A stretch of DNA of 64,000 nt from assembly GCF_003858635.1 (NCBI RefSeq), contig NZ_RQJO01000009.1, positions 186,001 through 250,000 on the forward strand, in the 5' to 3' direction. The position numbers were made by a program, and so were the translations under genes. Under the pieces are notes generated by a model. That model was given only the letters and a program-made list of their open reading frames with translations, was not told the origin of the DNA and ran no database searches. Source of the DNA: Larkinella rosea. GTDB lineage: Bacteria; Bacteroidota; Bacteroidia; Cytophagales; Spirosomataceae. How positions within the stretch are numbered: position 1 is the stretch's first letter; every line of letters starts with the position of its first letter. Of this stretch, positions 11,290 to 63,020 are shown piece after piece.

Positions 11290-11384
11290 AGGAGGAGAAA
11301 GGGAGGAAGGGAAGAGTGGAGGAAAGGGTATCGGGTGGTTCCGAATGCATCCTCCCTTCTTCCCTTCCTCCTTTTTCCTTTCCT
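11290..11384. repeat. Purine/pyrimidine inverted repeat between the OMP gene and lipA
   Basis: It begins 4 nt after the OMP stop. The left arm is almost pure purine (words GGAGGAGAAAGG, GGAGGAAGGGAAG), the right arm almost pure pyrimidine (CTTCCCTTCCTCC), and the arms pair imperfectly around a 23-nt centre. The same style of element follows lipA at 12326. Confidence 0.75.
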
Positions 11385-11446
11385 GCTTTTTCCCGAACTT
11401 TACTGCCCGAAAATCCATTGTGTAAAAAACTGGATTGAGGTTTGCT

Positions 11447-12325
11447 ATGATTGAACTTCCCGTAATACCCTCCGAACAGCAGCGTAAGAAACGCCCCGAT
11501 TGGCTGCGGGTGAAACTACCCATTGGCCCGGAATACGCCAAAGTCCGTAAATTAGTCGATACCTATAAGTTACATACCATTTGTGAAAGCGGCAATTGCC
11601 CGAACATGGGTGAGTGCTGGGGCGCCGGAACGGCCACGTTCATGATCCTGGGCAACGTCTGCACGCGCAGCTGTACCTTCTGCGCCGTCGCCACGGGCCG
11701 CCCGAACGAATATGATACCGACGAACCCCGCCGGGTGGCCGAAGCGATTCTGCTGATGAAAGTCAAACACGCCGTCATTACGTCCGTGAACCGCGACGAA
11801 CTGAAAGACCGGGGTGCCGAAATCTGGTACCAGACCGTTCGGGCCGTGAAAGATGTGTCGCCGACGACCACCATCGAAACGCTGATTCCCGATACCAAAG
11901 GCAATTGGGATGCGCTGACCCGGATGATCGAAGCCGGTCAGGAAGTGGTTTCACACAACATGGAAACCGTTGAACGGCTGTACCGACGCGTGCGTCCGCA
12001 GGCCCGGTATGAACGCAGTCTGGAACAGATCCGGCGGACGAAAGACTTCGGTCAGCGCACCAAATCGGGCATCATGCTGGGGTTGGGCGAAACCGTTGAT
12101 GAAGTGCTGAAAGCGATGGATGACCTGGTCGAGCACGGTCTAGACATTCTGACGTTGGGCCAATACCTGCAACCAACCAAGATGCACCACGAAGTGATCG
12201 AGTGGATTCACCCGGAAACGTTCGCGATGTACAAGGAAGAAGGCTTGAAACGCGGGTTGAAATACGTCGAATCCGGCCCGCTGGTGCGCTCGTCGTACCA
12301 TGCCGAACGCCATGTGAATGTCTGA
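11447..12325 (+). CDS. lipA: Lipoyl synthase
   Basis: A 292-residue radical SAM enzyme that inserts two sulfurs into octanoyl groups on 2-oxoacid dehydrogenase E2 subunits and GcvH. The auxiliary [4Fe-4S] cluster ligands C46, C51 and C57 and the radical SAM ligands C72, C76 and C79 (CTRSCTFC) are all present. The conserved RSSYHA near the C-terminus supplies the unusual Ser ligand. ATG 11447 is preferred over an in-frame TTG at 11435 that would add MRFA. Both flanking gaps are filled by purine-rich hairpins. No lipB is nearby. Confidence 0.97.
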
Positions 12326-12430
12326 GAAGAAGAAACGGAGGAAGGAGAAACGGAGAAAGGAGAAACGGAGGATAGGTTTTAAAGCCTTTTTCCATTTCTC
12401 CTTTCTCCTTTCCTCCTTTTTTCTTTTCTT
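12326..12430. repeat. Purine/pyrimidine inverted repeat between lipA and crtY
   Basis: It starts on the base after the lipA stop and ends 8 nt before the crtY start, so it fills the gap. The left arm repeats the word GGAGAAACGGAG about three times; the right arm carries the complement (TTTCTCCTTTCTCC). Arms are separated by a short TAGGTTTTAAAG centre. Confidence 0.8.
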
Positions 12431-12437
12431 GTTATGA

Positions 12438-13622: not shown

Positions 13623-13747
13623 TGGGCTTAACTCTATTTTCTCCTAATTCATTCAGGAAATTTGCAAAATCCGTCAATACCGGCGAATTTCATGAGTAGT
13701 ATTTTACCAAAAAAACTTTATTATGTAATAATGACAAATTGAGCCTC

Positions 13748-16297: not shown

Positions 16298-16342
16298 ACC
16301 GGCTGAACTACATATCTGACTATTCCTAAACCCGTTGTAACC

Positions 16343-17401
16343 ATGTACAGACGTGAATTTATCCAGAAAGCAGCTGCCGGAGCCTTCGCGCTCTCGTTGC
16401 CTAAAATGCCTGCCTTTCTGAAAGACGTGCCGATGGGGGTGGTGGTGCATTCCTACGGATTTCGCTGGAATTCAAAGATTGAAAGCAGTAAGTTTCCCGG
16501 TTTTACGAACGCCATCGAACTGGTGGATCACTGCAAGGAAATTGGGGCGGGGGGCGTGCAAACCGTCGTGAAAGACTGGTCGGCGGATTTTGCCAGAAAG
16601 CTTCGGAACGAGCGCGAAAAAGTGGGGCTCTATCTGGAAGGTTCCATTGGATTGCCCAAAAGACCGGAACAGGTGGCGGCTTTTGAGCAGGAAGTGATTA
16701 ACGCCAAAGAAGCCGGAGCGACCATTTTGCGGACGGTTTGCTCGAGCGGGCGACGCTACGAAACCTACCACTCCAACGAGGAATGGCAGAACGTCAAGAA
16801 AAACGCGCTGGTGTCGTTGCAATTAGCCGAACCCGTTCTGCGGAAACACAAGGTCAAACTGGCGGTTGAAAACCACAAAGACTGGCGGGCAACGGAACTG
16901 GTTGCCGCGCTGAAACAGCTGAATAGCGAGTGGATTGGCGTCACGCTGGATTTTGGTAATAGTATTTCGTTGCTCGAAGATCCGATGACGGTGGTTGAAA
17001 CGCTGGCACCGTACGTCTTCACAACGCACGTCAAAGACATGGGCGTCGCTGAATACGCCGACGGTTTTCTGCTGTCCGAAGTGCCGCTAGGGAAAGGTAT
17101 TCTGGATCTGCCGAAGATGATTGCGCTCTGCAAAAAACACAATCCGGCGGTGACCTTCAACCTCGAAATGATCACCCGCGATCCGCTGGAAATTCCGTGT
17201 CAGAAAAAAGAATATTGGGAAACCTTCGGCGATATTCCCAAATCGGATCTGGACCGCACGCTGCGCATGGTCAAAGCACAGACCTATAAGGCGGGATTGC
17301 CCCGGGTTTCCCAGTTATCGGGTGATGAAAAACTGGCAGTTGAGGAGAAAAACATTGTCGAATGCCTTTCGTACAGTAATAAGAAGTTGGGGATTAAATA
17401 G
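16343..17401 (+). CDS. Tat-signal sugar phosphate isomerase/epimerase-like TIM barrel
   Basis: A 352-residue xylose isomerase-like (AP endonuclease 2 fold) protein with a Tat-type signal (YRREFIQKAAAGAFALSL). Metal-site residues typical of the fold are visible in LAVENHKDW, GVTLDFGN and TTHVKDM. It is probably periplasmic or Tat-processed and acts on a sugar or sugar acid. It is the first gene of a four-gene run with two SDRs and an MFS transporter, all separated by repeat-filled gaps. The specific reaction is unknown. Confidence 0.82.
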   Translation: MYRREFIQKAAAGAFALSLPKMPAFLKDVPMGVVVHSYGFRWNSKIESSKFPGFTNAIELVDHCKEIGAGGVQTVVKDWSADFARKLRNEREKVGLYLEGSIGLPKRPEQVAAFEQEVINAKEAGATILRTVCSSGRRYETYHSNEEWQNVKKNALVSLQLAEPVLRKHKVKLAVENHKDWRATELVAALKQLNSEWIGVTLDFGNSISLLEDPMTVVETLAPYVFTTHVKDMGVAEYADGFLLSEVPLGKGILDLPKMIALCKKHNPAVTFNLEMITRDPLEIPCQKKEYWETFGDIPKSDLDRTLRMVKAQTYKAGLPRVSQLSGDEKLAVEEKNIVECLSYSNKKLGIK

Positions 17402-17408
17402 TGGTATC

Positions 17409-17502
17409 CGGTTTTCAGTTTACGGTATTCGGTGGCTGACGCATGTTTGCTAGCGCACGAAGTATAATGCGTCAGCTACCGAATACCGTAAACTGAAAAC
17501 CG
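17409..17502. repeat. Family A inverted repeat, 36-bp arms, between the isomerase and SDR genes
   Basis: Arms at 17409-17444 and 17467-17502 match at 35 of 36 positions; key words are CAGTTTACGGTATTCGGT and GGCTGACGCAT. The loop is 22 nt. The element starts 8 nt after the upstream stop and ends 15 nt before the next start. Related copies lie at 18308 and 51698. Confidence 0.92.
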
Positions 17503-17516
17503 TAAACAAATGAATA

Positions 17517-18302
17517 ATGAGTAAAGACATACTACCTGGTATTAAGCAATTTGATTTGAGTGGGCGGGCGGCCATCATCACGGGCGGTTCCAAAGGGCTA
17601 GGGCTGGCCATGGCTGCCGGACTCGCTTCGGCGGGGGCCAATGTGATGCTGGTGAACCGGAATGCCGAAGAAGGCGCGAAAGCCGCTGAAGAACTGAGTC
17701 GGGATTTTGGCGTCAAAGCCATTGCGTTCAGGGCCGATATTACCGACCAGGCACAAACCGAAGCCATGGCGCAAGCCGCTATCGACGCCTTTGGCCGGAT
17801 CGATGTTCTGATCAACAGCGCGGGCATCAACATTCGCGGACCGATCGACGAGGTAACGCTGGAAGATTTTAATAAAGTAATGAATGCCAATGTCAACGGC
17901 ACCTGGCTGAGCTGCCGCGCCGTGACGCCCTTCATGAAACAGGCCGGCCGAGGCAGCATCATCAACCTGGCCAGCACGCTCGGCATTGTCGGACTGGCCA
18001 ATCGGACGCCCTACACGTCCAGTAAAGGAGCCGTGGTGCAGATGACCCGCGGACTCGCGCTCGAACTGGCTCCGTTTAACATCACCGTCAACGCCATTTG
18101 TCCCGGCCCTTTCCTGACGGATATGAATGTACCAATTGCCGACACCGAAGAAGGCAAAAAATTCGTCGTGGGTGCCACGGCGCTGGGTCGCTGGGGTTTG
18201 CTGCGTGAAATTCAGGGAGCCGCCATTTTCCTCGCCAGCGATGCCGCTACCTACATGGTTGGCTCCATGCTTACCGTCGATGGCGGCTGGACGGCGAGAT
18301 GA
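17517..18302 (+). CDS. SDR family oxidoreductase (gluconate 5-dehydrogenase-like)
   Basis: A 261-residue classical short-chain dehydrogenase. The NAD(P)-binding motif GGSKGLGLAMA, the structural NSAGIN and the catalytic YTSSKGA (Tyr and Lys) are all present. VDGGWTAR closes the protein as in gluconate 5-dehydrogenase and 2-deoxy-gluconate 3-dehydrogenase relatives. Its place between an isomerase-like gene and a hexuronate-type transporter supports a role in sugar-acid oxidation or reduction. The exact substrate is inference. Confidence 0.88.
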   Translation: MSKDILPGIKQFDLSGRAAIITGGSKGLGLAMAAGLASAGANVMLVNRNAEEGAKAAEELSRDFGVKAIAFRADITDQAQTEAMAQAAIDAFGRIDVLINSAGINIRGPIDEVTLEDFNKVMNANVNGTWLSCRAVTPFMKQAGRGSIINLASTLGIVGLANRTPYTSSKGAVVQMTRGLALELAPFNITVNAICPGPFLTDMNVPIADTEEGKKFVVGATALGRWGLLREIQGAAIFLASDAATYMVGSMLTVDGGWTAR

Positions 18303-18307
18303 TAGAC

Positions 18308-18417
18308 GGTTTACGGTTTTCAGTTTACGGTTTTCGCCAGGCCGACGCTTCGGTTGTCTAACGTGTGAGAAATGAATGCGTCAGCCTCCAAAAACCGTAA
18401 ACTGAAAACCGTAAACC
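18308..18417. repeat. Family A inverted repeat between SDR and MFS genes
   Basis: Arms at 18308-18334 and 18391-18417 are perfectly complementary over 27 bp (words TTTACGGTTTTCAG and CAGTTTACGG). They extend inward with GGCCGACGC facing GCGTCAGCC. The loop holds CTAACGTGTGAGA, related to the loop of the copy at 51698. It starts 6 nt after the SDR stop. Confidence 0.92.
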
Positions 18418-18449
18418 AAAACCCAAATTTCCCTAAACCGAAAACCCTA

Positions 18450-19757
18450 ATGGAGCAAGTCATTGGCAGGATGCCGAAAACCCGGGTGCGCTACGGAATG
18501 CTGGCGCTCGTTTTTGTCAACGTGGTGATCAATTACCTGGATCGCACGAATCTGGCCGTGGCGGCTTCCAACCTGAGTAAAGACCTGGACTTGTCGCCGG
18601 TCAGTATGGGGTATATTTTTTCGGCATTCGGCTGGAGTTATGCGGTTTTGCAGATTCCTGGCGGTCTGGTGGCCGACCGGTTTGGCCCCCGGATTCTATA
18701 CGCTTTTTGCCTGATTACCTGGTCGTTTGTAACCATGCTTCAGGGATTTGCCAGCGGATTTGCCAGCCTATTTGGCCTGCGGCTGGCGACCGGAGCTTTC
18801 GAAGCGCCTTCGTACCCGATCAATAACCGCATCGTAACCAGCTGGTTCCCCGACAACGAACGGGCGGCCGCGACGGCCATGTACGTGTCGGGACAATTCA
18901 TTGGTCTGGCCTTTCTGACGCCGATTTTGGTGACGGTCCAGTATTACACGGGCTGGAAAGGGCTGTTTCTGGTAACCGGTCTGGTCGGAATGATCTGGGG
19001 CGTTGTCTGGTATCTATTCTACCGCGATCCGCTGGATCACTCGACCGTCAATCAGGCCGAACTCGATTACATTGAAGAAGGGGGCGGTTTGTTCCGGAGA
19101 CAAAAGAAAGCCGGAACGCAAGCCAACGTCTGGACCTGGGCAAATCTCAAACTGGTTTTTAGTGGACGAACATTATGGGGCGTTTATTTTGCCCAGTTTG
19201 CCGTCAACGCCACACTCTGGTTTTTCCTGACCTGGTTTCCAACCTATCTCGTCAAATACCGAGGACTGGACTTCATCAAGTCCGGTTACCTGGCTTCGAT
19301 TCCGTTTCTGGCCGCTTGCGCTGGGGTGCTTCTGTCCGGTTTTGTGTCCGATAATCTCGTAAAAAAAGGCTGGTCGGTCAGTGCGGCCCGGAAAACACCG
19401 ATCATCATCGGCTTGATTTTATCCGTCTCGCTGATCGGAGCCAATTACACCAACGACACCGCCTTAGTCATTTTCTTCATGTCATTCTCGTTTTTCGGAG
19501 CCGGAATGGCGCTGATTTCCTGGGTTTTTGTTTCTTTGCTGGCTCCCAAACACCTCATAGGCTTAACGGGGGGCGTTTTTAATTTCATGGGCAATCTGGC
19601 GTCGATCATTGTTCCCATTGTGATTGGGTATCTGGCCAAAGACGGCGATTTTAAACCGGCGCTGGTATTTGTCGGAACTCTGGGTTTCCTGGGCGCCTGT
19701 TCCTACACCTTCCTGGTCGGTAAAATCGAGCGGAGAGGGGAGACGATTGACCATTGA
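18450..19757 (+). CDS. MFS transporter, hexuronate/anion:cation symporter type
   Basis: A 435-residue, about 12-segment permease. The start at ATG 18450 (MEQVIGRMPKTRVRYG) is preferred over ATG 18372, whose extra 26 codons are translated from the intergenic repeat. NYLDRTNLAVAASNL and the loop GGLVADRFGPR are typical of the anion:cation symporter family (ExuT-like). It should import a sugar acid for the neighbouring dehydrogenases. The last codons (about GETIDH) are written by the left arm of the next repeat element, so the C-terminus has been altered by it. Confidence 0.88.
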   Translation: MEQVIGRMPKTRVRYGMLALVFVNVVINYLDRTNLAVAASNLSKDLDLSPVSMGYIFSAFGWSYAVLQIPGGLVADRFGPRILYAFCLITWSFVTMLQGFASGFASLFGLRLATGAFEAPSYPINNRIVTSWFPDNERAAATAMYVSGQFIGLAFLTPILVTVQYYTGWKGLFLVTGLVGMIWGVVWYLFYRDPLDHSTVNQAELDYIEEGGGLFRRQKKAGTQANVWTWANLKLVFSGRTLWGVYFAQFAVNATLWFFLTWFPTYLVKYRGLDFIKSGYLASIPFLAACAGVLLSGFVSDNLVKKGWSVSAARKTPIIIGLILSVSLIGANYTNDTALVIFFMSFSFFGAGMALISWVFVSLLAPKHLIGLTGGVFNFMGNLASIIVPIVIGYLAKDGDFKPALVFVGTLGFLGACSYTFLVGKIERRGETIDH

Positions 19758-19867
19758 CGATGGACCATTGACCATTGTCAGGAGAGCAGCATACCTGGCG
19801 GTTTTTCTGTCAATGGTCCATCGTCAGCGGTCAATGGTCAACAATCCATCGTCAGCGGTCAATCGTC
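19742..19867. repeat. Family B repeat (ACCATTGACGATGG words) overlapping the MFS stop codon
   Basis: One left arm (19742-19771) faces two right arms (19810-19839 and 19837-19867) built from GGTCCATCGTCAGCGGTCAA-like words. It is the only element in the window that runs into a coding sequence: the left arm supplies the last five codons and stop of the MFS gene. It ends 23 nt before the next start. Confidence 0.85.
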
Positions 19868-19889
19868 ATTTTTCAAATCTTAACCAAAA

Positions 19890-29439: not shown

Positions 29440-29562
29440 AATGTTTGTAGAAAATGCAAGTTTTTGAACGTTTCGGGCGTGCCATAGGTACGCAACCTGT
29501 ATTCCTGTTGCGTACCTACGGCACGTCTGAAAATCTCATTTGAACTTTTTGCTACAAACATT
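29440..29562. repeat. Nested inverted repeat between the SusD gene and the DUF1080/SGNH gene
   Basis: Outer arms AATGTTTGTAG (29440-29450) and CTACAAACATT (29552-29562) enclose inner arms at 29471-29496 and 29507-29532 (CGTGCC, GGTACGCAAC words) that pair with few mismatches around a 10-nt loop. It fills much of the 221-bp gap between two minus-strand genes. Confidence 0.85.
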
Positions 29563-44170: not shown

Positions 44171-45814
44171 ATGAGAAGAAGAGATTTTATCCAGCTCTCC
44201 GGTTTGGGAATGAGCGCCCTCATGGGCAGTTCCATCCCCGTTCTGGGCAGTACGGTTCCGTTGTCACAACTGCTCGAACCACGCGCTGACGCAGCCGCGA
44301 AAAAAAAACTGGCTGATGTGGCTCTGAATGCAGCCAGAAGCAAAGGTGCAACGTATGCGGACGTTCGGATCGGGCGGTATTTGCAGCAGTTTCTGTTCAC
44401 GCGGGAAATGAAGGTGCAGAACATCACCAACGCGGAGTCGTACGGGGTGGGCATTCGGGTGATTGCCAACGGAACCTGGGGTTTTTCGGCTACCAGCGAC
44501 GTTCGGCCGGAAGCCATTGCCAAATGCGCGGAAACCGCCGTTGCCATCGCCAAAGCCAATTCCAAACTGCAGAAAGAACCGGTCGATCTGGCTCCGCAAA
44601 AGGGTGTCGGTGACGTAAGCTGGAAAACGCCCCTGAAGAAAAATGCCTTCGAAGTGCCGGTTCAGGAAAAAATCGATTTGCTGATGAAGGTGAACGGCGA
44701 AGCGATGAAAAACGGAGCCGGTTTTGTGACGTCTAACCTGTTCTTTATCAACGAACAAAAATACTTTGCCTCCACGGACGGTTCCTACATCGATCAAGAT
44801 GTTCACCGCATCTGGCCGACCTTTACCGTGACGGCCGTCGACCGCCAGGCCGGTAAATTCAAAACCCGCGACGCGCTCAGTTCGCCAATGGGCATGGGTT
44901 ACGAGTATCTCGACGGCTCAGCAGCCGACAAAATTCCCGGTCCGAACGGGCTGATCAGCTACCGCAATTCCTACGACATGGTGGAAGACGCGACCGTTGC
45001 GGCCCGGCAGGCGAAGGAAAAGCTCACGGCCAAATCGATTCAATCCGGAAAATACGATCTGGTGCTCGATCCGAATCACCTCGGGTTGACCATCCACGAA
45101 TCGGTCGGACACGCCACGGAACTCGACCGCGTGTTGGGCTACGAAGCCAATTATGCCGGAACAAGCTTCGCGACGCTCGATAAATGGAAATCGAAAAACT
45201 TTCAATACGGCAGTAAACTGGTCAATATTGTGGCCGACAAAACCCAGCCGCACACGCTCGGAACCGTGGGCTACGACGACGAAGGTGTTCCGGGGAAAGA
45301 ATGGGATTTGATCAAAGACGGTATTCTGGTGAATTACCAGGCCATTCGCGATCAGGTCAAAATGTTGGGCGGTACCGAATCGAACGGCTGTTGCTACGCC
45401 GACAACTGGGATTCGATCCAGTTTCAGCGGATGCCGAACGTTTCGCTCAAACCGTCGGCGGAAAAACGCAGCGTTTCCGACATGATCAAAGGTGTCGACA
45501 AAGGCATTTACATCATGGGTCGTGGTTCTTATTCCATTGATCAACAACGGTATAACTTTCAGTTTGGCGGGCAATTGTTCTACGAAATCAAGAACGGACA
45601 GATTGTCGGGATGCTCGACGATGTGGCCTACCAGTCGAACACGCAGGAATTCTGGAACTCCTGCGTACAGCTTTGCGACAAGGACGATTACCGGACATTC
45701 GGTTCTTTTTTCGACGGAAAAGGCCAGCCTTCGCAAGTGAGCGCCGTCTCGCACGGTTGCCCCACCACCCGCTTCAACGGCGTCAATGTGATCAATACCG
45801 GGCGGAAGATATAA
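44171..45814 (+). CDS. TldD-type metalloprotease, Tat-exported (pair 1)
   Basis: A 547-residue TldD/PmbA-family protein. The start MRRRDFIQLSGLGMSAL is a Tat signal, whereas characterised TldD proteins are cytosolic. The zinc motif H309-E310-x3-H314 (HESVGH) is present. The third ligand in known TldD is a C-terminal Cys; candidates here are the two Cys in FWNSCVQLC and the Cys in SHGCPTTRF. The TldE-type partner gene follows after a repeat-filled 119-nt gap. It probably cleaves unfolded or modified peptides in the periplasm. A close paralogue lies at 50054. Confidence 0.88.
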   Translation: MRRRDFIQLSGLGMSALMGSSIPVLGSTVPLSQLLEPRADAAAKKKLADVALNAARSKGATYADVRIGRYLQQFLFTREMKVQNITNAESYGVGIRVIANGTWGFSATSDVRPEAIAKCAETAVAIAKANSKLQKEPVDLAPQKGVGDVSWKTPLKKNAFEVPVQEKIDLLMKVNGEAMKNGAGFVTSNLFFINEQKYFASTDGSYIDQDVHRIWPTFTVTAVDRQAGKFKTRDALSSPMGMGYEYLDGSAADKIPGPNGLISYRNSYDMVEDATVAARQAKEKLTAKSIQSGKYDLVLDPNHLGLTIHESVGHATELDRVLGYEANYAGTSFATLDKWKSKNFQYGSKLVNIVADKTQPHTLGTVGYDDEGVPGKEWDLIKDGILVNYQAIRDQVKMLGGTESNGCCYADNWDSIQFQRMPNVSLKPSAEKRSVSDMIKGVDKGIYIMGRGSYSIDQQRYNFQFGGQLFYEIKNGQIVGMLDDVAYQSNTQEFWNSCVQLCDKDDYRTFGSFFDGKGQPSQVSAVSHGCPTTRFNGVNVINTGRKI

Positions 45815-45817
45815 AAT

Positions 45818-45914
45818 CAGTATTCGGTGAGAACGTACCCACGGACTTTAGTCCGTGTTCATTATCGGGTCTAAAAACACGGACTAAAGTCCGTGGGTAC
45901 GTTTTACCGAATAC
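45818..45914. repeat. Nested inverted repeat (family C inside family A remnant) between tldD-like and tldE-like genes, pair 1
   Basis: Outer arms GTATTCGGT and ACCGAATAC (45820-45828, 45906-45914) match family A. Inside them sit perfect 27-bp arms at 45832-45858 and 45877-45903 carrying ACGGACTTTAGTCCGT, each itself a small hairpin. A second family C copy is at 62961. The element starts 4 nt after the stop. Confidence 0.93.
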
Positions 45915-45933
45915 CGTAAACCTCTCTAAAAAC

Positions 45934-47283
45934 ATGGCGATCTTAACGAAAGAAGAAGCGAAAAAGATAATCGATAAGGTTTTGGGCTATTCCAAAGCCG
46001 ACGAGACAAGTGTGAGCCTGAACGGAAACCGGACCGGTAACATTCGCTACGCCCGAAATACGGTTTCGACGAGTGGCGAAACCGATAACCTGGCGCTGGC
46101 CGTTACGGCGGTTTTTGGTAAAAAAGTCGGTTCGGCAACCATCAACGAATTTGACGATCAGTCGCTGGAAAAAACCGTTCGAAGAGCGGAGGAAGTAGCG
46201 CGGCTGGCGCCCGAAAATCCGGAATATGTACCGATGCTGGGTCCGCAGAAATACATCGAAACCGCATCTTACGCCGAAAGCACGGCCAAAATCAATCCGG
46301 AATTCCGGGCGCAGGCGGCTTTCGACAGCATTGAACCCTGCAACAAGAAGAATCTGACCGCAGCCGGTTACCTGGAAGATACGACCGGTTTTTCGGCCAT
46401 TGGAAACAGCAAGGGACTCTTCGGCTACAATCCGGTTACATCGGCCGTTTTTTCAGTAACGACCCGAACGGCTGACGGCACCGGTTCCGGCTATGCGTCC
46501 CGCGATGTTAATGATGTGTCGAAACTGAGCACCAAAGAAGCCACCGAAGTGGCCATGAACAAGGCGCTGGCGTCCGTCAATGCCAAAGCGCTGGAACCGG
46601 GGAAATACACGGTGATCCTGGAGCCGACGGCGGCTGGTGACCTCATCAATCTGATGATGAATAGTTTAGATGCCCGCAATGCCGAAGAAGGCCGGAGTTT
46701 TCTGAGCCGGAAAGGCGGAGGAACGCGGCTGGGCGAAAAATTCTTTGACGAACGCATCACGATTTTTTCCGATCCGGCGAACGTTGAAATTCCGGGTTCG
46801 CCCTTTACCGGGGGTGGGGGAGGCCGGTTTGGTGGGGGTGGCGTCGACGGTCGTCCGCAGGAAAAAACGCTGTGGGTCGAAAACGGCATTGTCAAAAACA
46901 TGAGTTATTCGCGGTATTGGGCGCAGAAAAATAATGTCAAAGCCGTGCCTCCTGCCGGCGGCTTTATTGTGCAGGGCGGAAATCAATCACTGCTGGATTT
47001 AATTAAAAGTACCCAAAAAGGAATTCTGGTTACCCGGTTTTGGTACATCCGCGCCGTCGATCCGCAAACGCTGTTGTATACCGGTTTGACCCGCGACGGA
47101 ACCTTTTTGATTGAAAACGGACAGATCAAATACCCGGTCAAAAACTTCCGGTTCAACGAAAGTCCGGTGATTATGCTGAACAACATCGAAGCACTGGGGA
47201 AAGCCGTCCGGTCGGGCGGCAATCTGATTCCGCCGATGAAAATCCGCGATTTTACGTTCAGTAGTTTGTCGGATGCGGTGTAG
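45934..47283 (+). CDS. TldE/PmbA-type partner protein (pair 1)
   Basis: A 449-residue member of the same superfamily without a HExxxH motif, the usual TldE state in the TldD/TldE heterodimer. ATG 45934 is chosen; the frame is open upstream but that part overlaps the tldD gene and the repeat. It has no signal peptide although its partner has one, so export would need transport bound to the partner. Around residue 290 there is a glycine-rich insertion (GGGGGRFGGGG) missing from the paralogue at 51813. Confidence 0.86.
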   Translation: MAILTKEEAKKIIDKVLGYSKADETSVSLNGNRTGNIRYARNTVSTSGETDNLALAVTAVFGKKVGSATINEFDDQSLEKTVRRAEEVARLAPENPEYVPMLGPQKYIETASYAESTAKINPEFRAQAAFDSIEPCNKKNLTAAGYLEDTTGFSAIGNSKGLFGYNPVTSAVFSVTTRTADGTGSGYASRDVNDVSKLSTKEATEVAMNKALASVNAKALEPGKYTVILEPTAAGDLINLMMNSLDARNAEEGRSFLSRKGGGTRLGEKFFDERITIFSDPANVEIPGSPFTGGGGGRFGGGGVDGRPQEKTLWVENGIVKNMSYSRYWAQKNNVKAVPPAGGFIVQGGNQSLLDLIKSTQKGILVTRFWYIRAVDPQTLLYTGLTRDGTFLIENGQIKYPVKNFRFNESPVIMLNNIEALGKAVRSGGNLIPPMKIRDFTFSSLSDAV

Positions 47284-50053: not shown

Positions 50054-51694
50054 TTGAACCGTCGAGATTTTCTTCAGCTGACCGGGTTGGGCACCGGCGC
50101 TTTCCTCTTGCCCAACAGCACGGTTTTCGGCCGCTCGGTTGCGCCGGAAGCGTTGCTGGAACCCGGGTTAGACGTGGCCGTTAAGAAACGCCTGGCCGAT
50201 GCCGCCCTGAATGCGGCCAAAGCCAAAGGAGCCAGTTACACCGATATTCGGATTGGCCGGTATTTGCGGCAATTTGTAACCACGCGCGAAGACAAAGTAC
50301 AGAATATTGTCAATACCGAGTCTTTCGGTGTCGGGGTACGTGTGATTGTCGATGGCTGCTGGGGCTTTGCTTCCGTGGTCGATGCCAAGAGCGAAGCCCA
50401 AACCGCCAAAGCCGCCGAGGATGCCGTGGCAATTGCCAAAGCCAATGCCCGGTTGATGAAACAACCCGTACAACTCGCTCCGCAAAAAGGGTTTGGCGAG
50501 GTAAGCTGGAAAGCACCGATCAAGAAAAATGCCTTTGAAGTGCCCATCAAAGAGAAGGTTGACCTGCTGTTGACAGTCAACGATGCGGCCCTGAAAAATG
50601 GGGCTAACTACGTCAATTCGGTCTTGTTCATGGTCAACGAGCAGAAGTACTTTGCATCGTCGGACGGTTCGTACATCGATCAGGACATTCACCGGATGTG
50701 GCCCACGTTTAATGTAACGGCCATCGATCCGAAAACCGGTAAATTTGAGACGCGGGGCGAATTGAGCGCGCCGATGGGCATGGGGTACGATTACCTTCAA
50801 GCGAATCCGAGCGACAAAATAACCGGGATTACAACCCGCTACAACAGAGGCTACGACATGCTGGAAGACGTGACGGCGGCCGCTAAACAGGCGAAGCAAA
50901 AGCTCACGGCGAAGTCGGTTGAAGCCGGAAAATATGACCTTGTGCTGGACCCATCGCACCTCTGGTTGACCATCCACGAATCGGTGGGCCACCCGCTGGA
51001 GCTGGACCGCGTGCTGGGCTACGAAGCCAATTTTGCCGGAACCTCCTTTGCCACCCTCGATAAATGGAAGTCGAAAACCTTCAATTACGGCAGCAAGCAG
51101 GTGAATCTGTTTGCCGATAAAACACAGGTGGGTTCGCTGGGCGCCGTGGGTTGGGACGACGAAGGCGTGGCCTGCAAAAAGTGGGATCTGGTAAAAGAAG
51201 GCACGCTGGTAAACTACCAGGCCATTCGCGATCAGGTGCACATCCTCGGCGAAAACGAATCGCAGGGCTGCTGCTACGCCGATAGTTGGGGTTCGGTGCA
51301 GTTTCAGCGGATGGCGAATGTGTCGCTGGCGGCTGGCAAAACGCCCTTGTCGGTGGAGCAGATGATCAAGGACGTCAAGAAAGGCATTTACATCATCGGC
51401 GATGGCTCGTTTTCGATTGATCAACAGCGGTATAACTTCCAGTTCGGCGGTCAGTTGTTCTACGAAATCAAGAACGGACAGATTGCTGGAATGCTGAAAG
51501 ACGTGGCGTATCAATCGAATACGCAGGAATTCTGGAACTCCTGCACCCAGATTTGCGACGAGCGGGATTACCGTCTGGGCGGTTCGTTCTTCGACGGAAA
51601 AGGCCAGCCCATGCAGGTAAGCGCTGTCTCGCACGGCAGTTCGACCACCCGTTTCAACGGGGTCAATGTGATCAATACAGCACGGAAAATATAA
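50054..51694 (+). CDS. TldD-type metalloprotease, Tat-exported (pair 2), TTG start
   Basis: A 546-residue paralogue of the protein at 44171, similar along the whole length. Translation must begin at TTG 50054: an in-frame stop lies at 50033, no ATG is in between, and the Tat signal NRRDFLQLTG begins at once. The zinc motif HESVGH is kept. The C-terminal Cys of the paralogue (SHGCPTTRF) is Ser here, while FWNSCTQIC is conserved, which favours the latter as the source of the third zinc ligand. Its TldE-type partner follows after a repeat-filled gap. Confidence 0.88.
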   Translation: MNRRDFLQLTGLGTGAFLLPNSTVFGRSVAPEALLEPGLDVAVKKRLADAALNAAKAKGASYTDIRIGRYLRQFVTTREDKVQNIVNTESFGVGVRVIVDGCWGFASVVDAKSEAQTAKAAEDAVAIAKANARLMKQPVQLAPQKGFGEVSWKAPIKKNAFEVPIKEKVDLLLTVNDAALKNGANYVNSVLFMVNEQKYFASSDGSYIDQDIHRMWPTFNVTAIDPKTGKFETRGELSAPMGMGYDYLQANPSDKITGITTRYNRGYDMLEDVTAAAKQAKQKLTAKSVEAGKYDLVLDPSHLWLTIHESVGHPLELDRVLGYEANFAGTSFATLDKWKSKTFNYGSKQVNLFADKTQVGSLGAVGWDDEGVACKKWDLVKEGTLVNYQAIRDQVHILGENESQGCCYADSWGSVQFQRMANVSLAAGKTPLSVEQMIKDVKKGIYIIGDGSFSIDQQRYNFQFGGQLFYEIKNGQIAGMLKDVAYQSNTQEFWNSCTQICDERDYRLGGSFFDGKGQPMQVSAVSHGSSTTRFNGVNVINTARKI

Positions 51695-51697: not shown

Positions 51698-51792
51698 CAG
51701 TTTACAGTTTTCAGTGTTCGGTTTTCGGTCGGCTAACGCGAGCTATACGAATGCGTCAACCAGCCGAAAACTGTAAATCGAAAACCTTAAAC
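51698..51792. repeat. Family A inverted repeat between tldD-like and tldE-like genes, pair 2
   Basis: Arms run from about 51698-51739 and 51752-51792 with words CAGTTTACAGTTTTCAG and CAGCCGAAAACTGTAAAT. It is less perfect than the copies at 17409 and 18308, but the loop GGCTAACGCGAGCTATACG is related to theirs. It starts 4 nt after the stop and ends 21 nt before the next start. Confidence 0.85.
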
Positions 51793-51812: not shown

Positions 51813-53147
51813 ATGGTTCTTCTAACCGAAGCGGAAGCGAAGGCGTTGCTTCAGAAGGTGTTAAGTTATTCAAAGGCGGACGAATGCGTGGTGAATTTGT
51901 CGGGCGGGGAGAGCGGCAATATCCGCTATGCCCGGAACGAGGTGTCGACCAGTGGGTCCACCATTAACCAGAATTTGCAGGTGCAGTCGGCCTTCGGGAA
52001 AAAAGTTGGTGTGGCCACCATCGACGAGTTTGATGATGCTTCGCTGGAAAAAGTGGTGCGCCGGGCCGAAGAACTGGCACACCTGGCCCCCGAAAATCCT
52101 GAATATGTCAGCGTTCTTGGACCGCAGCAATACCTGAAATCGACCGGTTTTTTTGAATCGACAGCCAAAATTACCCCCGCAACCCGCGCTGAAGCGATTG
52201 CCAAAAGCTTAGATGTATCGGGGAATCAAAAGCTGGCGGCTGCCGGTTTTCTGGAGGATTATCGCGGTTATTCGGCCATGATGAACTCCAAAGGACTGTT
52301 TGCGTATTACCCCAGCACGAACGTGAATTTTTCGCTGACGGTTCGCACGGACGACGGCACGGGTTCGGGATACGTGACGCGTGGCTACAGTGATTTTTCG
52401 AAACTGGACACCAGTTCGGCCACCAAAATTGCGGTCGAAAAATGCCTGGGTTCGGTGGGCGCACGGGCGCTGGAACCGGGAAAATACACGGTGATTCTGG
52501 AGCCGACGGCGGGCGTGGTGCTGCTCGAAAATATCTTTTTTGGGATGGACGCCCGCAGCGCCGACGAAGGACGGTCGTTTCTGAGCAAACCGGGAGGCAA
52601 AACCAAGCTGGGTGAAAAGATTGTGGATGAGCGGGTTACGATTTTCTCCGATCCGACCAATCCGGAATTGCCGGCTTCTCCTTGGGCGGGCGATGGTCAG
52701 CCGCGGGAGAAGATCAACTGGATCGAGAAAGGCGTTGTGAAAAACATGGCCTACTCGCGTTTCTGGGCGCAGAAGAAAGGGGTAAAACCGGTTCCGTTTC
52801 CGAGTAACGTGATTATGGCGGGGGGCACAGCCTCGCTTGATGACATGATCAAGAGCACGCAGCGCGGCATTCTGGTGACCAAACTCTGGTACATCCGCAC
52901 CGTCGATCCGCAAACGTTGTTGCTGACCGGTTTGACGCGCGACGGTACGTTTTACATCGAAAACGGCAAGATCAAGCACCCAATCAAGAATTTCCGGTTT
53001 AACGAAAGCCCGGTCATTATGTTAAATAATCTGGAAGCATTGGGAAAACCGGAGCGGGTGGTCAGCACCGAATCGAATTCAAACTACCTGATTCCGCCGA
53101 TGAAAATCCGGGAGTTTACATTTAGTAGTCTTTCAGACGCGGTATAG
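51813..53147 (+). CDS. TldE/PmbA-type partner protein (pair 2)
   Basis: A 444-residue paralogue of the protein at 45934. It has no HExxxH motif and no signal peptide. GNIRYARNEVSTSGS near residue 30-45 and ENGKIKHPIKNFRFNESP near the C-terminus are shared with the first copy. It lacks the glycine-rich insertion of the first copy and has a short PWAGDGQPREK loop there. It should pair with the TldD-type protein encoded upstream. A family D repeat follows its stop codon. Confidence 0.86.
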   Translation: MVLLTEAEAKALLQKVLSYSKADECVVNLSGGESGNIRYARNEVSTSGSTINQNLQVQSAFGKKVGVATIDEFDDASLEKVVRRAEELAHLAPENPEYVSVLGPQQYLKSTGFFESTAKITPATRAEAIAKSLDVSGNQKLAAAGFLEDYRGYSAMMNSKGLFAYYPSTNVNFSLTVRTDDGTGSGYVTRGYSDFSKLDTSSATKIAVEKCLGSVGARALEPGKYTVILEPTAGVVLLENIFFGMDARSADEGRSFLSKPGGKTKLGEKIVDERVTIFSDPTNPELPASPWAGDGQPREKINWIEKGVVKNMAYSRFWAQKKGVKPVPFPSNVIMAGGTASLDDMIKSTQRGILVTKLWYIRTVDPQTLLLTGLTRDGTFYIENGKIKHPIKNFRFNESPVIMLNNLEALGKPERVVSTESNSNYLIPPMKIREFTFSSLSDAV

Positions 53148-53151
53148 ATAC

Positions 53152-53496: not shown

Positions 53497-53902
53497 AATT
53501 TTTATTGATACGGCACCGCTGATTTATCTACTACAAAATCATACTGAATTCTACCCAAAAGTGGCTGAATATCTGTCTCAGGCCGTTGAAAACAACGTTG
53601 AATTTGAAACCAGTGTGCTGACTGTCAGCGAATTTTGTGTTAAGCCCGAACAGACTGGACGGTATGATTTAATCGAAGATTTCGATATTTTTCTAAAAGA
53701 GCTTGACTGCCGGTTAGTTGATGTAACCTTGGAAATTGCAAAAACCGCATCGAAACTCAGAGCCAAATACTTGTTTTTAAAAGCTGTCGATTCGTTACAG
53801 ATTGCCACTGCAATTGAGAATCAATGTGACAGGTTTCTGACGAATGATAAAAAGCTTAAAGGCATACAGGAAATCGAAATAATTGTGATTGCTGAGCTTT
53901 AA
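53483..53902 (+). CDS. PIN-domain ribonuclease toxin (VapC-like)
   Basis: A 139-residue PIN-domain protein. The four acidic metal ligands can be placed: D9 (FIDTAPLIYLL), E50 (TVSEF), D103 (KAVDSLQIATAI) and D122 (FLTNDKKL). VapC toxins cleave specific RNAs, often tRNA. The ATG is within the antitoxin gene. The gene's end runs into the upstream frame of the DUF4159 gene, so the module is tightly packed before the operon. Confidence 0.88.
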   Translation: MTVSRIFIDTAPLIYLLQNHTEFYPKVAEYLSQAVENNVEFETSVLTVSEFCVKPEQTGRYDLIEDFDIFLKELDCRLVDVTLEIAKTASKLRAKYLFLKAVDSLQIATAIENQCDRFLTNDKKLKGIQEIEIIVIAEL

Positions 53903-53945
53903 CCAGGTTCGCGATCAGGTAAATAGTATATTTCATCAACGCATT

Positions 53946-54563: not shown

Positions 54564-54566
54564 TCA

Positions 54567-55541: not shown

Positions 55542-55653
55542 AGTTATTTCGCAGAGTTGAGCGGAGTTAAAAAGAGTTCAGCGAAGAAATACTATTTAGA
55601 ACTCTGCTTAACTCATTTTTTACTCCGCTCAACTTCGCGAAACAATCTTTATC
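55541..55653. repeat. Family E inverted repeat between the MoxR and DUF58 genes
   Basis: Starts on the last base of the MoxR stop and ends on the base before the DUF58 ATG. The left end AAGTTATTTCGCAGAGTTG and the right end GCGAAACAATCTTTATC match the ends of the element at 53152. Internal words AGCGGAGT and AGAGTTCAGCGAAG return inverted as TACTCCGCT and AACTCTGC. Confidence 0.9.
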
Positions 55654-59980: not shown

Positions 59981-61650
59981 GATTATTCGATTCTTTTACC
60001 ATCACGTTTAATCCCTCTGAACCAATTAGCTGGGTCATTCTGGCCCTATTGGTACTGTTATTTATTGTAAAAGTTTGGTTAATCGTCAGAAGCAAATCAC
60101 TTTCGATTCAGCGAAGATGGATTCGATTTGGTTTAAACGGGTTATTGTGGATTCTTCTGGTTGGATACTTTTTGCAATTGGAATGGGTGATACCGGCGAA
60201 TTCAAACCCGGTTTTAATTGCCGATGCAAATGTGCCCGCTACCTATTTAAACAAGCTGAAAGATAGCCTGAAAATTGCCGACGTTGTTCGGGTTAATGCG
60301 TTAAATACCGCATTGTTTCGTTCGCGTCTTTTTGATGGGATGATCGATTCGGTTACGTTAATTGGTACCGGTTTTGCACCCGATGTGCTGGGGCAATTGA
60401 GTCGTCAGACTGTGCAATGGATTCCGTATGATCCACCCGATCAACTACAACTTATCAGGTGGAAAGGAATGATTCGGAAAGGCGAGATGCAGCGCGTGAG
60501 CGGTTCGATTTATTCCTCGCAGAAACAGGTACTTAAAATACAGTTTGGCAACCAGACGTTGGACAGTTTATCGTTGCGCGCCGGGCTGAATGATTTCACA
60601 CTGGAGTTTCCCACTTTTGTGCAGGGCCGTACTGAAGTGGAGTTGGTTCTGAATCAAAAACCGCTCGATACGCTTCGCTTTTTTGCCCGAAATCCGGAGC
60701 CGGTTTCCTACCAGTTTATTCTTGACAGCCCCGATTTTGAAAGTAAAACGCTCGCCGATTGGCTGGGCAAACAGGGGCATTCCGTTCAGTTGATTGCTAC
60801 CATTTCGAAGGATATCCGCAACCGCGTTAACATCAACCGGGGGGATGTCGCGGACGTGCTTATTACCGATCCTGCTAATGCCACCAATCCGGTTGTAAAG
60901 AAAGCCGTTGCGCAGGGTAAACCCGTTCTGATCATGAATGTATCGGATGCCGAAACGGAGTGTAAAACCGTCAATCAGGCATTGGGAACGAACTGGAAAC
61001 TCAGGAAAACCGCCAACGAAACCACCGTTTCAGTCGGAAACGGAGTTCGGGCACTGCCTTACCAATTGCTGGATGCGGTCAACCAGTTTCCGGTTCCCGG
61101 TTTTCCGGTGGCTGTTCAGAAAACCCCTGCGAAAATCGGACTGAGCTTGCTCAGTGAAACTTTCCCCTTGAAATTGAGTGGCGACAGCATTGCGTACGGG
61201 CGCATCTGGACAGCTATTCTGACGCTTTTGCAACCCGTCCACACGAATAATGTGGAGATTGAAGCACCGGTTTTTAAAGGAATCCGTTCCCGAATCCAGT
61301 TGAATCATTTAACCGGTAAACCCACTGCGGTTCGCATCGGAAAAGATGCGGTTAAGCTGGATTATTCGGCCATCAATGGCTTGTCGGCGGAGGCTTCGTA
61401 TTTGTTTGGGCAGGCTGGCTGGCAGTGGTTTCAGGATTCCTTGGCGATTTATGTGGATAAACCGGACAACAAAACCGGATTTGACAACCGCCTGATGAGC
61501 GATTATTTGCGGAGCCGTTCAATGGAATTTTCCGTTCAGAAAACCGCTTCACTCCATGTTCTTCACGTTAAAATCCCAGATTGGGTTTGGATACTGCTAT
61601 TCATCTGCACTTTAACGATGCTTTGGATTGAACCGAAACTTAGCATTTGA
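59977..61650 (+). CDS. Membrane protein of the MoxR/BatA operon
   Basis: A 557-residue protein with two N-terminal membrane segments (SWVILALLVLLFIVKVWLIV; NGLLWILLVGYFLQL) and one at the C-terminus (WVWILLFICTLTMLWI). The periplasmic centre is beta-rich and contains a possible class I glutamine amidotransferase-like fold, as in other BatA-operon proteins, without catalytic residues I can confirm. It overlaps the previous gene by 4 bp (ATGA) and ends the operon; metK follows with its own promoter, whose -33 box lies across this gene's stop. Confidence 0.8.
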   Translation: MRLFDSFTITFNPSEPISWVILALLVLLFIVKVWLIVRSKSLSIQRRWIRFGLNGLLWILLVGYFLQLEWVIPANSNPVLIADANVPATYLNKLKDSLKIADVVRVNALNTALFRSRLFDGMIDSVTLIGTGFAPDVLGQLSRQTVQWIPYDPPDQLQLIRWKGMIRKGEMQRVSGSIYSSQKQVLKIQFGNQTLDSLSLRAGLNDFTLEFPTFVQGRTEVELVLNQKPLDTLRFFARNPEPVSYQFILDSPDFESKTLADWLGKQGHSVQLIATISKDIRNRVNINRGDVADVLITDPANATNPVVKKAVAQGKPVLIMNVSDAETECKTVNQALGTNWKLRKTANETTVSVGNGVRALPYQLLDAVNQFPVPGFPVAVQKTPAKIGLSLLSETFPLKLSGDSIAYGRIWTAILTLLQPVHTNNVEIEAPVFKGIRSRIQLNHLTGKPTAVRIGKDAVKLDYSAINGLSAEASYLFGQAGWQWFQDSLAIYVDKPDNKTGFDNRLMSDYLRSRSMEFSVQKTASLHVLHVKIPDWVWILLFICTLTMLWIEPKLSI

Positions 61651-61676
61651 CCTGTCGTAAAATTCCAGTAGCTTTG
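61646..61676 (+). promoter_or_regulatory. Bacteroidota promoter of metK
   Basis: TTTG at 61646-61649, exactly 19 nt, then TAGCTTTG at 61669-61676. This is the best consensus match in the window. The start site would be about 61683, giving a leader of only some 25 nt, too short for a SAM riboswitch. The -33 box overlaps the end of the upstream operon. Confidence 0.75.
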
Positions 61677-61707
61677 TGGCTGTTTTTAGTCTTAAATCTT
61701 ACGTACG

Positions 61708-62961
61708 ATGCCCTATCTATTTACCTCAGAGTCAGTCTCTGAAGGACATCCCGACAAAGTTGCGGATCAGATTTCCGATGCATTGATCGACCATTTTCTG
61801 GCTTATGATCCTTCCAGCAAGGTTGCCTGCGAGACACTCGTTACAACCGGACAGGTAGTTTTGGCCGGGGAGGTAAAAACGACAACATACCTCGACGTTC
61901 AGAAAATTACCCGGGAAGTGATCCGACGCATTGGGTATACCAAAAGCGAATACATGTTTGAAGCCGATTCCTGCGGCATTCTTTCGGCCATTCACGACCA
62001 GTCGGCCGACATCAATCAGGGCGTTGAACGTTCGAATCCGGAAGACCAGGGCGCGGGCGATCAGGGCATGATGTTCGGGTACGCAACCAACGAAACGGAC
62101 AACTTTATGCCGTTGCCGCTCGATCTGGCCCACAAGATTTTGCAGGAAATGTCGTACATCCGGAACAACGATTCGAGCATCCTGCCGTATCTCCGCCCGG
62201 ATGCCAAATCGCAGGTAACGATTGAATACAGCGATGATCACAAGCCCGTACGGATCGATACGATCGTGGTTTCGACGCAGCACGACGATTTTGGCAGCGA
62301 CGAAGCGATGCTTGCCCGGATTCGCGAAGATGTGATCAATATTGTCATTCCGCGCGTGAAAGCCGCCCTGAAACCGGAATTACAAGACCTGTTTACGGAT
62401 GATATTACGTATTATATCAACCCAACGGGCAAATTTGTCATTGGCGGACCGCACGGGGATACGGGTCTGACGGGCCGTAAAATCATTGTCGATACCTACG
62501 GCGGAAAAGGCGCCCACGGTGGGGGGGCATTCTCCGGCAAAGATCCCTCGAAAGTAGATCGATCGGCGGCTTATGCTACCCGGCACATTGCCAAAAACCT
62601 GGTAGCGGCCGGTCTTTGCGATCAGATTCTGGTTCAGGTTTCGTACGCCATTGGGGTGGCAAAACCGTGCGGATTGTACGTCAATACGTATAATTCCGCG
62701 AAAGTTGACCTGACCGACGGTGAAATTGCGACCAAAATCGAAGAGCTTTTCGATATGCGTCCGTACGCCATCGAGCAACGCCTGAAACTGCGGAATCCGA
62801 TTTATTCCGAAACGGCAGCTTACGGCCACATGGGTCGGAAGAATGAAGTCGTTATGAAGACATTTGGAATGAATGGCAACTCGAAAGAAGTAGAAGTTGA
62901 GCTGTTTACGTGGGAAAAACTCGATTACGTCGATAAAATAAAAACCGCATTTGGATTATAA
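61708..62961 (+). CDS. metK: S-adenosylmethionine synthetase
   Basis: A 417-residue enzyme that makes S-adenosylmethionine from methionine and ATP. Family signatures are clear: [14 protein letters not shown] at the N-terminus, the [12 protein letters not shown] hexapeptide region and [19 protein letters not shown]. The length is that of Bacteroidota MetK. The gene has its own promoter. A family C inverted repeat begins at the last base of its stop codon, followed by a strong terminator. Confidence 0.98.
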
Positions 62962-63020
62962 CGTACCTACGGACTTTAGTCCGTGTATATAATCTTACGG
63001 ACTAAAGTCCGTGGGTACAT
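62961..63020. repeat. Family C inverted repeat after metK
   Basis: Arms 62961-62985 and 62996-63020 carry ACGGACTTTAGTCCGT and its partner, pairing at all but three of 25 positions. It starts on the last base of the metK stop. It is the same family as the inner arms at 45832. Confidence 0.9.

What the first reader, a model, noticed from the sequence alone, without database searches (positions are those of the whole stretch)
11290..63020. Long inverted repeats fill gaps between genes and start at the stop codon
Ten intergenic elements follow one positional rule: the left arm begins from 15 nt inside to 8 nt after the upstream stop (for example on the first base after the stop at 12326, on the last stop base at 55541 and 62961, 4 nt after it at 45818 and 51698). 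Most end 0-37 nt before the next start. Sequence families are unrelated, so position and fold, not sequence, is shared. They may be mRNA-processing or stability elements that separate genes of one transcript, or a family of small mobile palindromes that target the 3' ends of genes. I know of no named class that combines these properties, though short repeated words between genes are known in Bacteroidota and cyanobacteria.
Basis: partly seen in the sequence, partly recalled or inferred. Interest (0 to 1): 0.85.

Follow-up and report, generated by a model that had tools for sequence, protein, structure and literature searches.

The report
Repeat-armed hairpins at gene ends
In this soil bacterium many gaps behind genes hold long hairpins whose two arms are built of short, often seven-base repeats; comparison with sister species suggests that DNA copying errors, not an RNA job, keep the two arms matched, in a pattern partly known from other bacteria.

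Summary
In a 1.744 Mb sample of this Larkinella genome, 182 long inverted repeats lie in gaps: 130 in 699 same-direction gaps, 45 in 157 convergent, 7 in 160 divergent; where there is room, 29 of 43 start within 20 nt of the stop (8.0 expected). The position rule is not new: REPs and Xanthomonas heptamer repeats follow it (PMC3733652, PMC4692102). The 7-nt signal is in the arms (z 12.4), not in loops (0.9) or hairpin-free gaps (-2.2); 0 of 115 Proteobacterial long-loop palindromes have significantly periodic arms. In sister species the same gap may hold a different hairpin or none; loops are inverted in 5 of 17 decidable gaps; arm changes are often mirrored (100 double against 293 one-sided); some inserts sit in both arms. 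One-sided changes give as many A-C as G-U mismatches (76 against 79), which speaks against upkeep through RNA pairing. I favour replication template switching as upkeep, with gene 3' ends as tolerated sites. New variant of a known kind.

The parts
11298..11375 (+). GA-rich inverted repeat after the stop at 11285
   Evidence: arms 26 nt, 88%; +12 from stop
12327..12433 (+). GA-rich inverted repeat (GGAGAAAC/GGAGAAA units by eye) filling the gap 12326-12437
   Evidence: arms 43 nt, 81%; period not significant in the test; an inverted repeat scoring 12 or more in all 7 Larkinella genomes where the gap was compared, own included
17393..17518 (+). 7-nt periodic hairpin, GGTTTTC/AGTTTAC units, inner GGCTGACGCAT core
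   Evidence: strict arms 17409-17444 and 17467-17502, period 7; gap of 8 nt without hairpin in G001 and G005
18308..18417 (+). 7-nt periodic hairpin, GGTTTAC/GGTTTTC units
   Evidence: 27 nt perfect arms, period 7; no inverted repeat scoring 12 in G004, probably L. terrae
19742..19867 (+). 7-nt periodic hairpin, TTGACCA/TTGACGA units; the stop codon 19755-19757 lies inside the left arm
   Evidence: in G004 the stop lies before the element
29471..29532 (-). palindrome GTGCCGTAGGTACGCAAC, 75 nt after a minus-strand stop: exception to the rule
45818..45916 (+). outer heptad arms CAGTATTCGGT/ACCGAATACCG around an inner palindrome pair: nested
   Evidence: read from sequence; G003 and G006 have a heptad hairpin here, G001, G002, G005 a 21-23 nt gap
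45832..45903 (+). REPIN-like pair of CACGGACTTTAGTCCGTG palindromes
   Evidence: 28 nt perfect arms; 96 genome sites of the palindrome
51700..51792 (+). heptad hairpin with GGCTAACGC core
   Evidence: score 12.5, below the threshold used elsewhere; hairpins in G004, G007, G002, G003, G006, gaps of 14-15 nt in G001 and G005
55544..55645 (+). hairpin with about 10-nt units (GCAGAGTTGA GCGGAGTTAA, by eye)
   Evidence: arms 30 nt, 87%; hairpin in all 8 Larkinella genomes compared, in G002 of the GGTTTAC kind instead; the period of this copy was not significant in the test
62963..63018 (+). REPIN-like ACGGACTTTAGTCCGT pair, followed by a terminator-like hairpin

Best explanation
The gaps hold at least two kinds of palindrome. 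One is REPIN-like: two inverted copies of a short palindrome. The other is a hairpin whose arms are degenerate tandem repeats, mostly of 7 nt (some 8-10), read G-rich and C-poor from the outside towards the loop. The second kind is best explained as a DNA-level product of replication: when a polymerase stalls in the palindrome it switches template to the other arm and back. That makes both arms copies of one arm (mirrored substitutions, mirrored inserts) and can flip the loop. Loss or gain of single units by slippage changes arm length. Such DNA is tolerated just behind stop codons and between convergent genes, and not between divergent genes where promoters lie; the position rule then follows from selection on where it may stay. 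An effect on mRNA may exist but is not needed. Shown here: periodicity confined to the arms, position, turnover between species, loop inversion, mirrored changes, no G-U excess in the larger sets. Inferred: template switching as the cause, slippage as the growth step, tolerance as the cause of the position.
For: 7-nt autocorrelation of 124 long-loop arms z 12.4, 11.1 and 6.3 at lags 7, 14, 21; loops lag 7 z 0.9; 423 hairpin-free gaps lag 7 z -2.2; 111 Pseudomonas arms lag 7 z -13.8. 66 of 129 long-loop elements individually periodic, 44 at 7 nt, against 2 of 129 after shuffling. Loop orientation, 80 orthologous hairpin pairs: 36 same, 8 inverted, 36 undecided; among G002, G003, G007 (90-91% identical over aligned DNA) 23 distinct gaps: 5 with an inversion, 12 the same only, 6 undecided; shuffle p 0.0002-0.001 for the five. 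Mirrored changes: 2396 scored pairs, 100 changed on both sides and still paired, 38 changed on both sides and unpaired, 293 on one side; worked by hand from the marginals, independence gives about 34 double changes, about 11 of them paired. Mirrored inserts: G007 against G003 in one convergent gap; L065 and L066 in the own genome; a second module in both arms in 8 of 8 occurrences, that is four hairpins. G-U against A-C: 79 to 76, 70 to 64. Exact unit steps: 7 nt between G003 and G006, 14 nt between own and G004. Mechanism precedent: arm homogenisation and spacer inversion by template switching in yeast (PMC8604942: abstract, introduction, section 6), creation and upkeep of stems (PMC8794818: abstract and opening).
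Against: Slippage in 7-nt steps is not significant overall: 7 of 49 indels of 3 nt or more in hairpin gaps are multiples of 7, 2 of 30 in gaps without. The first, smaller sample of periodic arms leaned to G-U (23 to 15 own, 32 to 18 relatives). Register shifts in repeats can mimic mirrored changes, and species pairs were scored in both directions and over all long-loop hairpins, not periodic ones alone. Module A is mirrored in 6 of 14 occurrences (three hairpins), single in 8; module C in 0 of 3. Two of the eight inverted pairs are weak (p 0.005 and 0.008, loops partly palindromic), and one of the five inverted gaps has a loop of only 11 nt. Loop inversion is also common in Pseudomonas palindromes (104 same, 78 inverted, 101 undecided, not independent), so it does not mark this class. 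Arms of different loci resemble each other far beyond chance (94 of 129 against 2 shuffled), which local template switching alone does not explain. Hairpin-free gaps, without signal at lags 7 and 14, have z 4.9 at lag 21, unexplained.
Confidence: 0.58

Rival explanations
1. RNA-level function: the hairpin at the stop protects or separates the mRNAs of neighbouring genes, and selection for RNA pairing keeps arms complementary.
For: 3' position in same-direction and convergent gaps; the gap at 55541 has a hairpin in 8 of 8 Larkinella genomes compared although one has another sequence family; mirrored changes; early G-U lean in periodic arms.
Against: G-U not above A-C in the larger sets; hairpin absent in some species at 45814, 17401, 18302; 7-nt units in the arms have no obvious RNA reason; loops flip and change.
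Confidence: 0.2
2. All are non-autonomous mobile palindromes moved as units by RAYT-like transposases.
For: Presence/absence between species; REPIN-like family with 96 palindrome sites; two RAYT-like genes in the genome, both beside palindromic words; arm families shared between loci.
Against: 5 of 129 long-loop elements have another element in the sample matching over at least 80% of their length; the palindromes beside the two genes are not those of the window (words of two window families absent from both 3 kb loci), one is confined to its locus with 6 sites and words like the other's occur twice in 1.744 Mb; periodic arms form a class apart from arms that are palindromic in themselves.
Confidence: 0.12
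3. Tandem heptamers spread as direct repeats, and hairpins are just two arrays that happen to lie head to head.
For: Heptamer direct repeats are known in Bacteroidetes and cyanobacteria (PMC4679880, section 10) and in Xanthomonas, where many are paired (PMC4692102, section 10).
Against: No 7-nt signal at lags 7 and 14 in gaps without hairpins or in loops; mirrored inserts and mirrored changes.
Confidence: 0.08

Closest known systems
GGGAATC heptameric repeats of Xanthomonas (PMC4692102; passages and sections 10, 13 read)
   Same: 7-nt units, intergenic, near the upstream stop on the sense strand (average 28 nt against 160 nt to the downstream ORF), few between divergent ORFs, G-rich strand orientation, inverted pairs in 70 and 75 cases, long repeats at different genes in the two species.
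   Different: One unit sequence there, many here; discussed there as G-quadruplex formers; in the passages I read no loop inversion or mirrored change is reported.
REP / REPIN palindromes (PMC3733652 abstract and section 15; PMC3116915 passages; PMC2817692 abstract)
   Same: Extragenic hairpins close to the 3' ends of genes, between same-direction and convergent ORFs, may supply the stop codon; inverted doublets with a spacer. Fits the ACGGACTTTAGTCCGT elements in layout.
   Different: Repeat-armed hairpins are not doublets of one conserved palindrome, have periodic arms, and whole copies are rare.
TAACTGA heptamer direct repeats of Beggiatoaceae, cyanobacteria, some Bacteroidetes (PMC4679880; abstract, sections 3, 10)
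   Same: 7-nt intergenic repeats, partly in the same phylum; indels mostly in 7-nt steps noted in Cyanothece.
   Different: Direct repeats, in the Maribeggiatoa genome mostly just upstream of start codons, one unit sequence.
Template-switch inverted repeats (PMC8604942 abstract, introduction, section 6; PMC8794818 abstract and opening)
   Same: Arm homogenisation, spacer inversion, one-step double changes.
   Different: Described in yeast coding genes and in RNA genes; the inverted yeast spacers are 2-5 bp with arms of 10-16, against arms of 23-55 nt and loops of 11-40 nt in the inverted cases here.

Membership tests
REP/REPIN | two inverted copies of a short imperfect palindrome with spacer | tested here: met
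   for the ACGGACTTTAGTCCGT elements at 45832 and 62963; REPIN-like by self-palindromic arm: 7 of 93 own elements
REP/REPIN | arm itself palindromic, in the repeat-armed hairpins | tested here: not met
   of 93 own elements the script terminator-like, 7 REPIN-like, then 39 periodic and 30 other; an element that is both palindromic-armed and periodic would be counted as REPIN-like
REP/REPIN | cognate RAYT gene flanked by the same palindrome | tested here: inconclusive
   two Y1_Tnp matches in the genome; L032 is flanked by CCGGAGC palindrome pairs, L031 by GGGCGATGCCC-like words; words of the window's ACGGACT and GTACGCAAC palindromes are in neither locus; a RAYT too diverged for the model could have been missed
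REP/REPIN | location next to gene 3' ends, avoidance of divergent gaps | tested here: met
   rule taken from PMC3733652
Xanthomonas-type heptamer repeats | 7-nt tandem units near stop codons, often in inverted pairs | tested here: met
Xanthomonas-type heptamer repeats | one conserved unit sequence | tested here: not met
   by inspection several unit sequences in one genome
Xanthomonas-type heptamer repeats | G-quadruplex formation | not tested
   no quadruplex scan was made
Intrinsic terminator | short-loop stem followed by a T run | tested here: inconclusive
   the class discussed has loops over 12 nt by definition; 14 of 129 have 5 or more T in the 8 nt after the right arm, but so do only 4 of 53 short-loop ones, so this count does not separate the two
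Template-switch products | arm homogenisation and spacer inversion between close relatives | tested here: met
   the event itself was not observed
MITE | near-identical whole copies | tested here: not met
   5 of 129 long-loop elements have a partner covering at least 80%; target duplication not tested
Integron attC site | conserved R and L boxes and a cassette integrase | not tested
   considered because attC sites also lie behind stop codons (recalled); no search for an integrase was made

The most novel reading that the evidence does not exclude
These are a self-perpetuating class of palindromic minisatellite with no transposase and no RNA function: short unit arrays fold, and replication template switching both grows and polishes them, so that new hairpins of changing sequence 'language' keep arising at gene 3' ends across the genus. 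The same process would underlie the Xanthomonas heptamer pairs.
Probability: 0.3. Interest if true: 0.7.

Novelty: new variant of a known kind. Interest (0 to 1): 0.5.

Why it matters
It offers a dense natural record of template switching in a bacterium: on the order of 900 long inverted repeats per genome by extrapolation from 199 in 1.744 Mb, with loop flips between species 9-10% apart over aligned DNA. It warns that hairpins behind genes with apparent compensatory changes need not be functional RNAs, and it gives a simple test (G-U against A-C mismatches on the transcript strand) to tell DNA-level from RNA-level upkeep. It also links two literatures, REPs and heptamer repeats, that report the same position rule.

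Tried and rejected
Rfam: no match at gathering score in the window. tRNA: none. Intrinsic terminators: set aside for the long-loop class on loop length; the T-run count did not separate classes. RAYT mobilisation of the window's families: no RAYT-like gene with matching flanks found. Phylum-wide spread of one strict heptad pattern: 3 of 296 genomes, but the pattern hits the own genome only once, so it says little. Plasmid searches with two elements: no match; a protein search of plasmids was uninformative. All-frame stop codons as the reason for units of 7 and 10: left arms have stops in 1.55 frames against 1.29 shuffled, right arms 0.87 against 0.89; some left arms contain the gene's own stop, so this is biased and not used. 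Placement test over all gaps: no signal because elements fill gaps. Multiples of 7 among indels: not clearly enriched. Literature: the listings (open-licence library) showed no title or abstract opening on repeat-armed hairpins in Larkinella or Spirosoma; papers outside that library were not searched.

Limits: genes were called by my own codon-usage script, not a standard caller. Rows dropped: 57 of 147 hairpin comparisons were skipped for poor alignment; own gaps over 600 nt, and gaps with fewer than three relatives were not printed; gaps over about 800 nt; pairs with dissimilar arms; the orthologous hairpins are eight hand-picked gaps.
Full report
What was checked. The window lies in an 8.17 Mb genome whose nearest named relatives are Larkinella terrae and L. 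punicea. All ten elements of the finding exist. Nine begin from 16 nt inside to 12 nt after the upstream stop; 29471-29532 is the exception at 75 nt. To ask whether this is a rule I took 1.744 Mb of the genome in 20 kb stretches, including the surroundings of the window, called genes with a codon-usage script and found inverted repeats with a seed-and-extend script.

Position. Of 199 inverted repeats scoring 15 or more, 182 fall in gaps: 130 in 699 same-direction gaps, 45 in 157 convergent, 7 in 160 divergent; 2 of the other 17 lie inside called genes. One dinucleotide shuffle of an 864 kb subset gave none against 89 found. For the 129 with loops over 12 nt, the 102 in same-direction gaps begin at a median of 6.5 nt from the stop (quartiles 1 and 14); 19 of 102 begin on or before the last stop base, 44 at 0-10, 20 at 11-20, 19 beyond 20 nt. 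Where at least 80 nt are spare, 29 of 43 begin within 20 nt of the stop (8.0 expected) and 2 of 43 end within 20 nt of the next start. The same rule is published for REPs (PMC3733652, section 15 read) and for heptamer repeats in Xanthomonas (PMC4692102, sections 10 and 13 read).

Two kinds at least. Some elements are pairs of a short palindrome (ACGGACTTTAGTCCGT, 96 sites of its 18-mer form in the genome; many of the listed ones in pairs 38-66 nt apart) and are REPIN-like in layout. No RAYT gene with matching flanks was found: of two Y1_Tnp matches, one (L032) is flanked by CCGGAGC...GCTCCGG, which has only six sites, all at that locus, the other (L031) by GGGCGATGCCC-like words. The other kind has arms of degenerate tandem units. 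Over 124 long-loop arms the match at lag 7 is 0.427 against 0.318 expected (z 12.4), at 14 z 11.1, at 21 z 6.3. Loops, 423 hairpin-free gaps and 111 Pseudomonas palindrome arms do not show it at lag 7 (z 0.9, -2.2, -13.8); short-loop arms show a little (z 3.1); hairpin-free gaps have an unexplained z 4.9 at lag 21. Singly, 66 of 129 long-loop elements are periodic (44 at 7 nt, 7 at 8, 7 at 10, 5 at 9, 3 other) against 2 of 129 shuffled; 63 are not. Among control loci, 0 of 115 Proteobacterial long-loop palindromes are periodic, and 2 of 12 in Spirosoma. Periodic arms read from outside inwards are G-rich: G above C in 57 of 66, C above G in 5, equal in 4, the strand sense also reported in Xanthomonas.

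Turnover. Orthologous gaps in seven other same-genus genomes (G001-G007; an eighth, G008, for a few gaps) and in other genera were compared. The gap at 55541 has a hairpin in all eight same-genus genomes where it was found, own included: seven of the GCGGAG kind and one (G002) of the GGTTTAC kind. The gap at 45814 has hairpins, most of different sequence, in own, G004, G007, G003 and G006 (the last two nearly alike), and only 21-23 nt in G001, G002 and G005. The gap at 17401 is 8 nt in G001 and G005. In the own genome 45818 is nested: heptad outer arms around a REPIN-like pair. Whole copies are rare: 5 of 129 long-loop elements have a partner in the sample covering at least 80% of their length, while arms resemble other arms (94 of 129 with nearest-neighbour score 16 or more, 2 when shuffled) and loops only slightly exceed chance (63 of 116 at 12 or more, 34 shuffled).

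How the arms stay matched. Three results point to the DNA level. First, loops flip: of 80 orthologous hairpin pairs 36 have the loop the same way, 8 inverted, 36 undecided. Within G002, G003 and G007 (90-91% identical over aligned DNA), 23 distinct gaps were compared: five show an inversion (G003 coordinates 26064, 45863, 99659, 109794; G002 21611; p 0.0002-0.001 by shuffling), twelve do not and six are undecided (its list of 24 holds one gap twice). In the gap at G003 26064, G002 and G007 agree and G003 is flipped. Second, arm changes are mirrored: of 2396 pairs, 1965 unchanged, 293 changed on one side, 100 on both with pairing kept, 38 on both without; from the marginals I expect about 34 double changes, 11 of them paired. 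Some inserts are mirrored too: G007 carries a GC-rich module in both arms of a hairpin that G003 has without it; L065 and L066 show the same in the own genome; a second module is in both arms of four hairpins. But module A is single in 8 of 14 occurrences, and module C is never paired (0 of 3). Third, one-sided changes make as many A-C as G-U mismatches on the strand of the upstream gene (76 to 79, convergent and divergent gaps included; 64 to 70 in same-direction gaps of the own genome, p 0.67). Selection for RNA pairing should favour G-U. An earlier, smaller periodic subset leaned to G-U (55 to 33 over own and relatives), so a weak RNA effect is not excluded.

Template switching gives arm homogenisation and spacer inversion (PMC8604942: abstract, introduction, section 6 read; PMC8794818: abstract and opening read). 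It is my preferred mechanism, not a shown one: RecA-type recombination between arms could also flip loops. Loop inversion is also frequent among Pseudomonas palindromes at orthologous sites (78 inverted, 104 same, 101 undecided; pairs not independent, and interchangeable REPIN copies could mimic it). So it is probably a general property of such palindromes. Growth by 7-nt slippage rests on single cases (7 nt between G003 and G006, 14 nt between own and G004) and is not clear overall (7 of 49 against 2 of 30). What remains unexplained is why arms at distant loci share the same 'languages', and why 7.

Verdict. The finding is real. Its position rule is known. What it adds is a many-sequence class of repeat-armed hairpins with periodicity confined to the arms and with loop flips and mirrored changes between sister species. 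I rate it a new variant of a known kind, between Xanthomonas-type heptamer repeats and REPs.

Noticed in passing
G000:C13:33443-34854 (L032): RAYT-like gene (190 aa, weak Y1_Tnp match) beside three inverted pairs of CCGGAGC..GCTCCGG palindromes that, as this pattern, occur nowhere else in the genome.
   Followed up: partly
L031:1302-2005 (G000:C11 near 866000): Second RAYT-like gene (Y1_Tnp 91.9 bits) with GGGCGATGCCC/GGGCATCGCCC words before it and GGGCGTTGCCC after it.
   Followed up: partly
window 44210-45814, 45934-47283, 50087-51694, 51813-53147: Four PmbA/TldD metallopeptidase genes (three by Pfam; 45934-47283 by similarity); the first and third are followed at once by hairpins of different make.
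   Followed up: partly
L065:11004, L066:16499, L064:4470, G007:C27 near 44990, others: A small dispersed GC-rich repeat (CCGCGCGGGCGGCCCCG-like) inserted in hairpins, sometimes in one arm or loop, sometimes in both arms.
   Followed up: partly
inner part of hairpins, e.g. window 17393, 18308, L067, L257, L274: A core TGACGC/GCGTCA recurs inside hairpins with different arm families: 13 of 129 against 2.4 in shuffles.
   Followed up: partly
L073 start; G004:C7 end at 364315: The L. terrae contig ends inside or beside the element orthologous to 17393 (alignment begins at 17409), as if the hairpin broke the assembly.
   Followed up: no
window 63024-63055: Terminator-like hairpin AAAAAAGCCGCC..GGCGGCTTTTTT directly behind the REPIN-like element at 62963.
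   Followed up: no
window 19755-19757: The MFS gene's stop codon is supplied by the heptad array; in G004 (probably L. terrae) the gene stops before the element.
   Followed up: yes
window 1172-1218: Perfect short-loop hairpin 13 nt after the stop at 1158, ordinary terminator shape.
   Followed up: no
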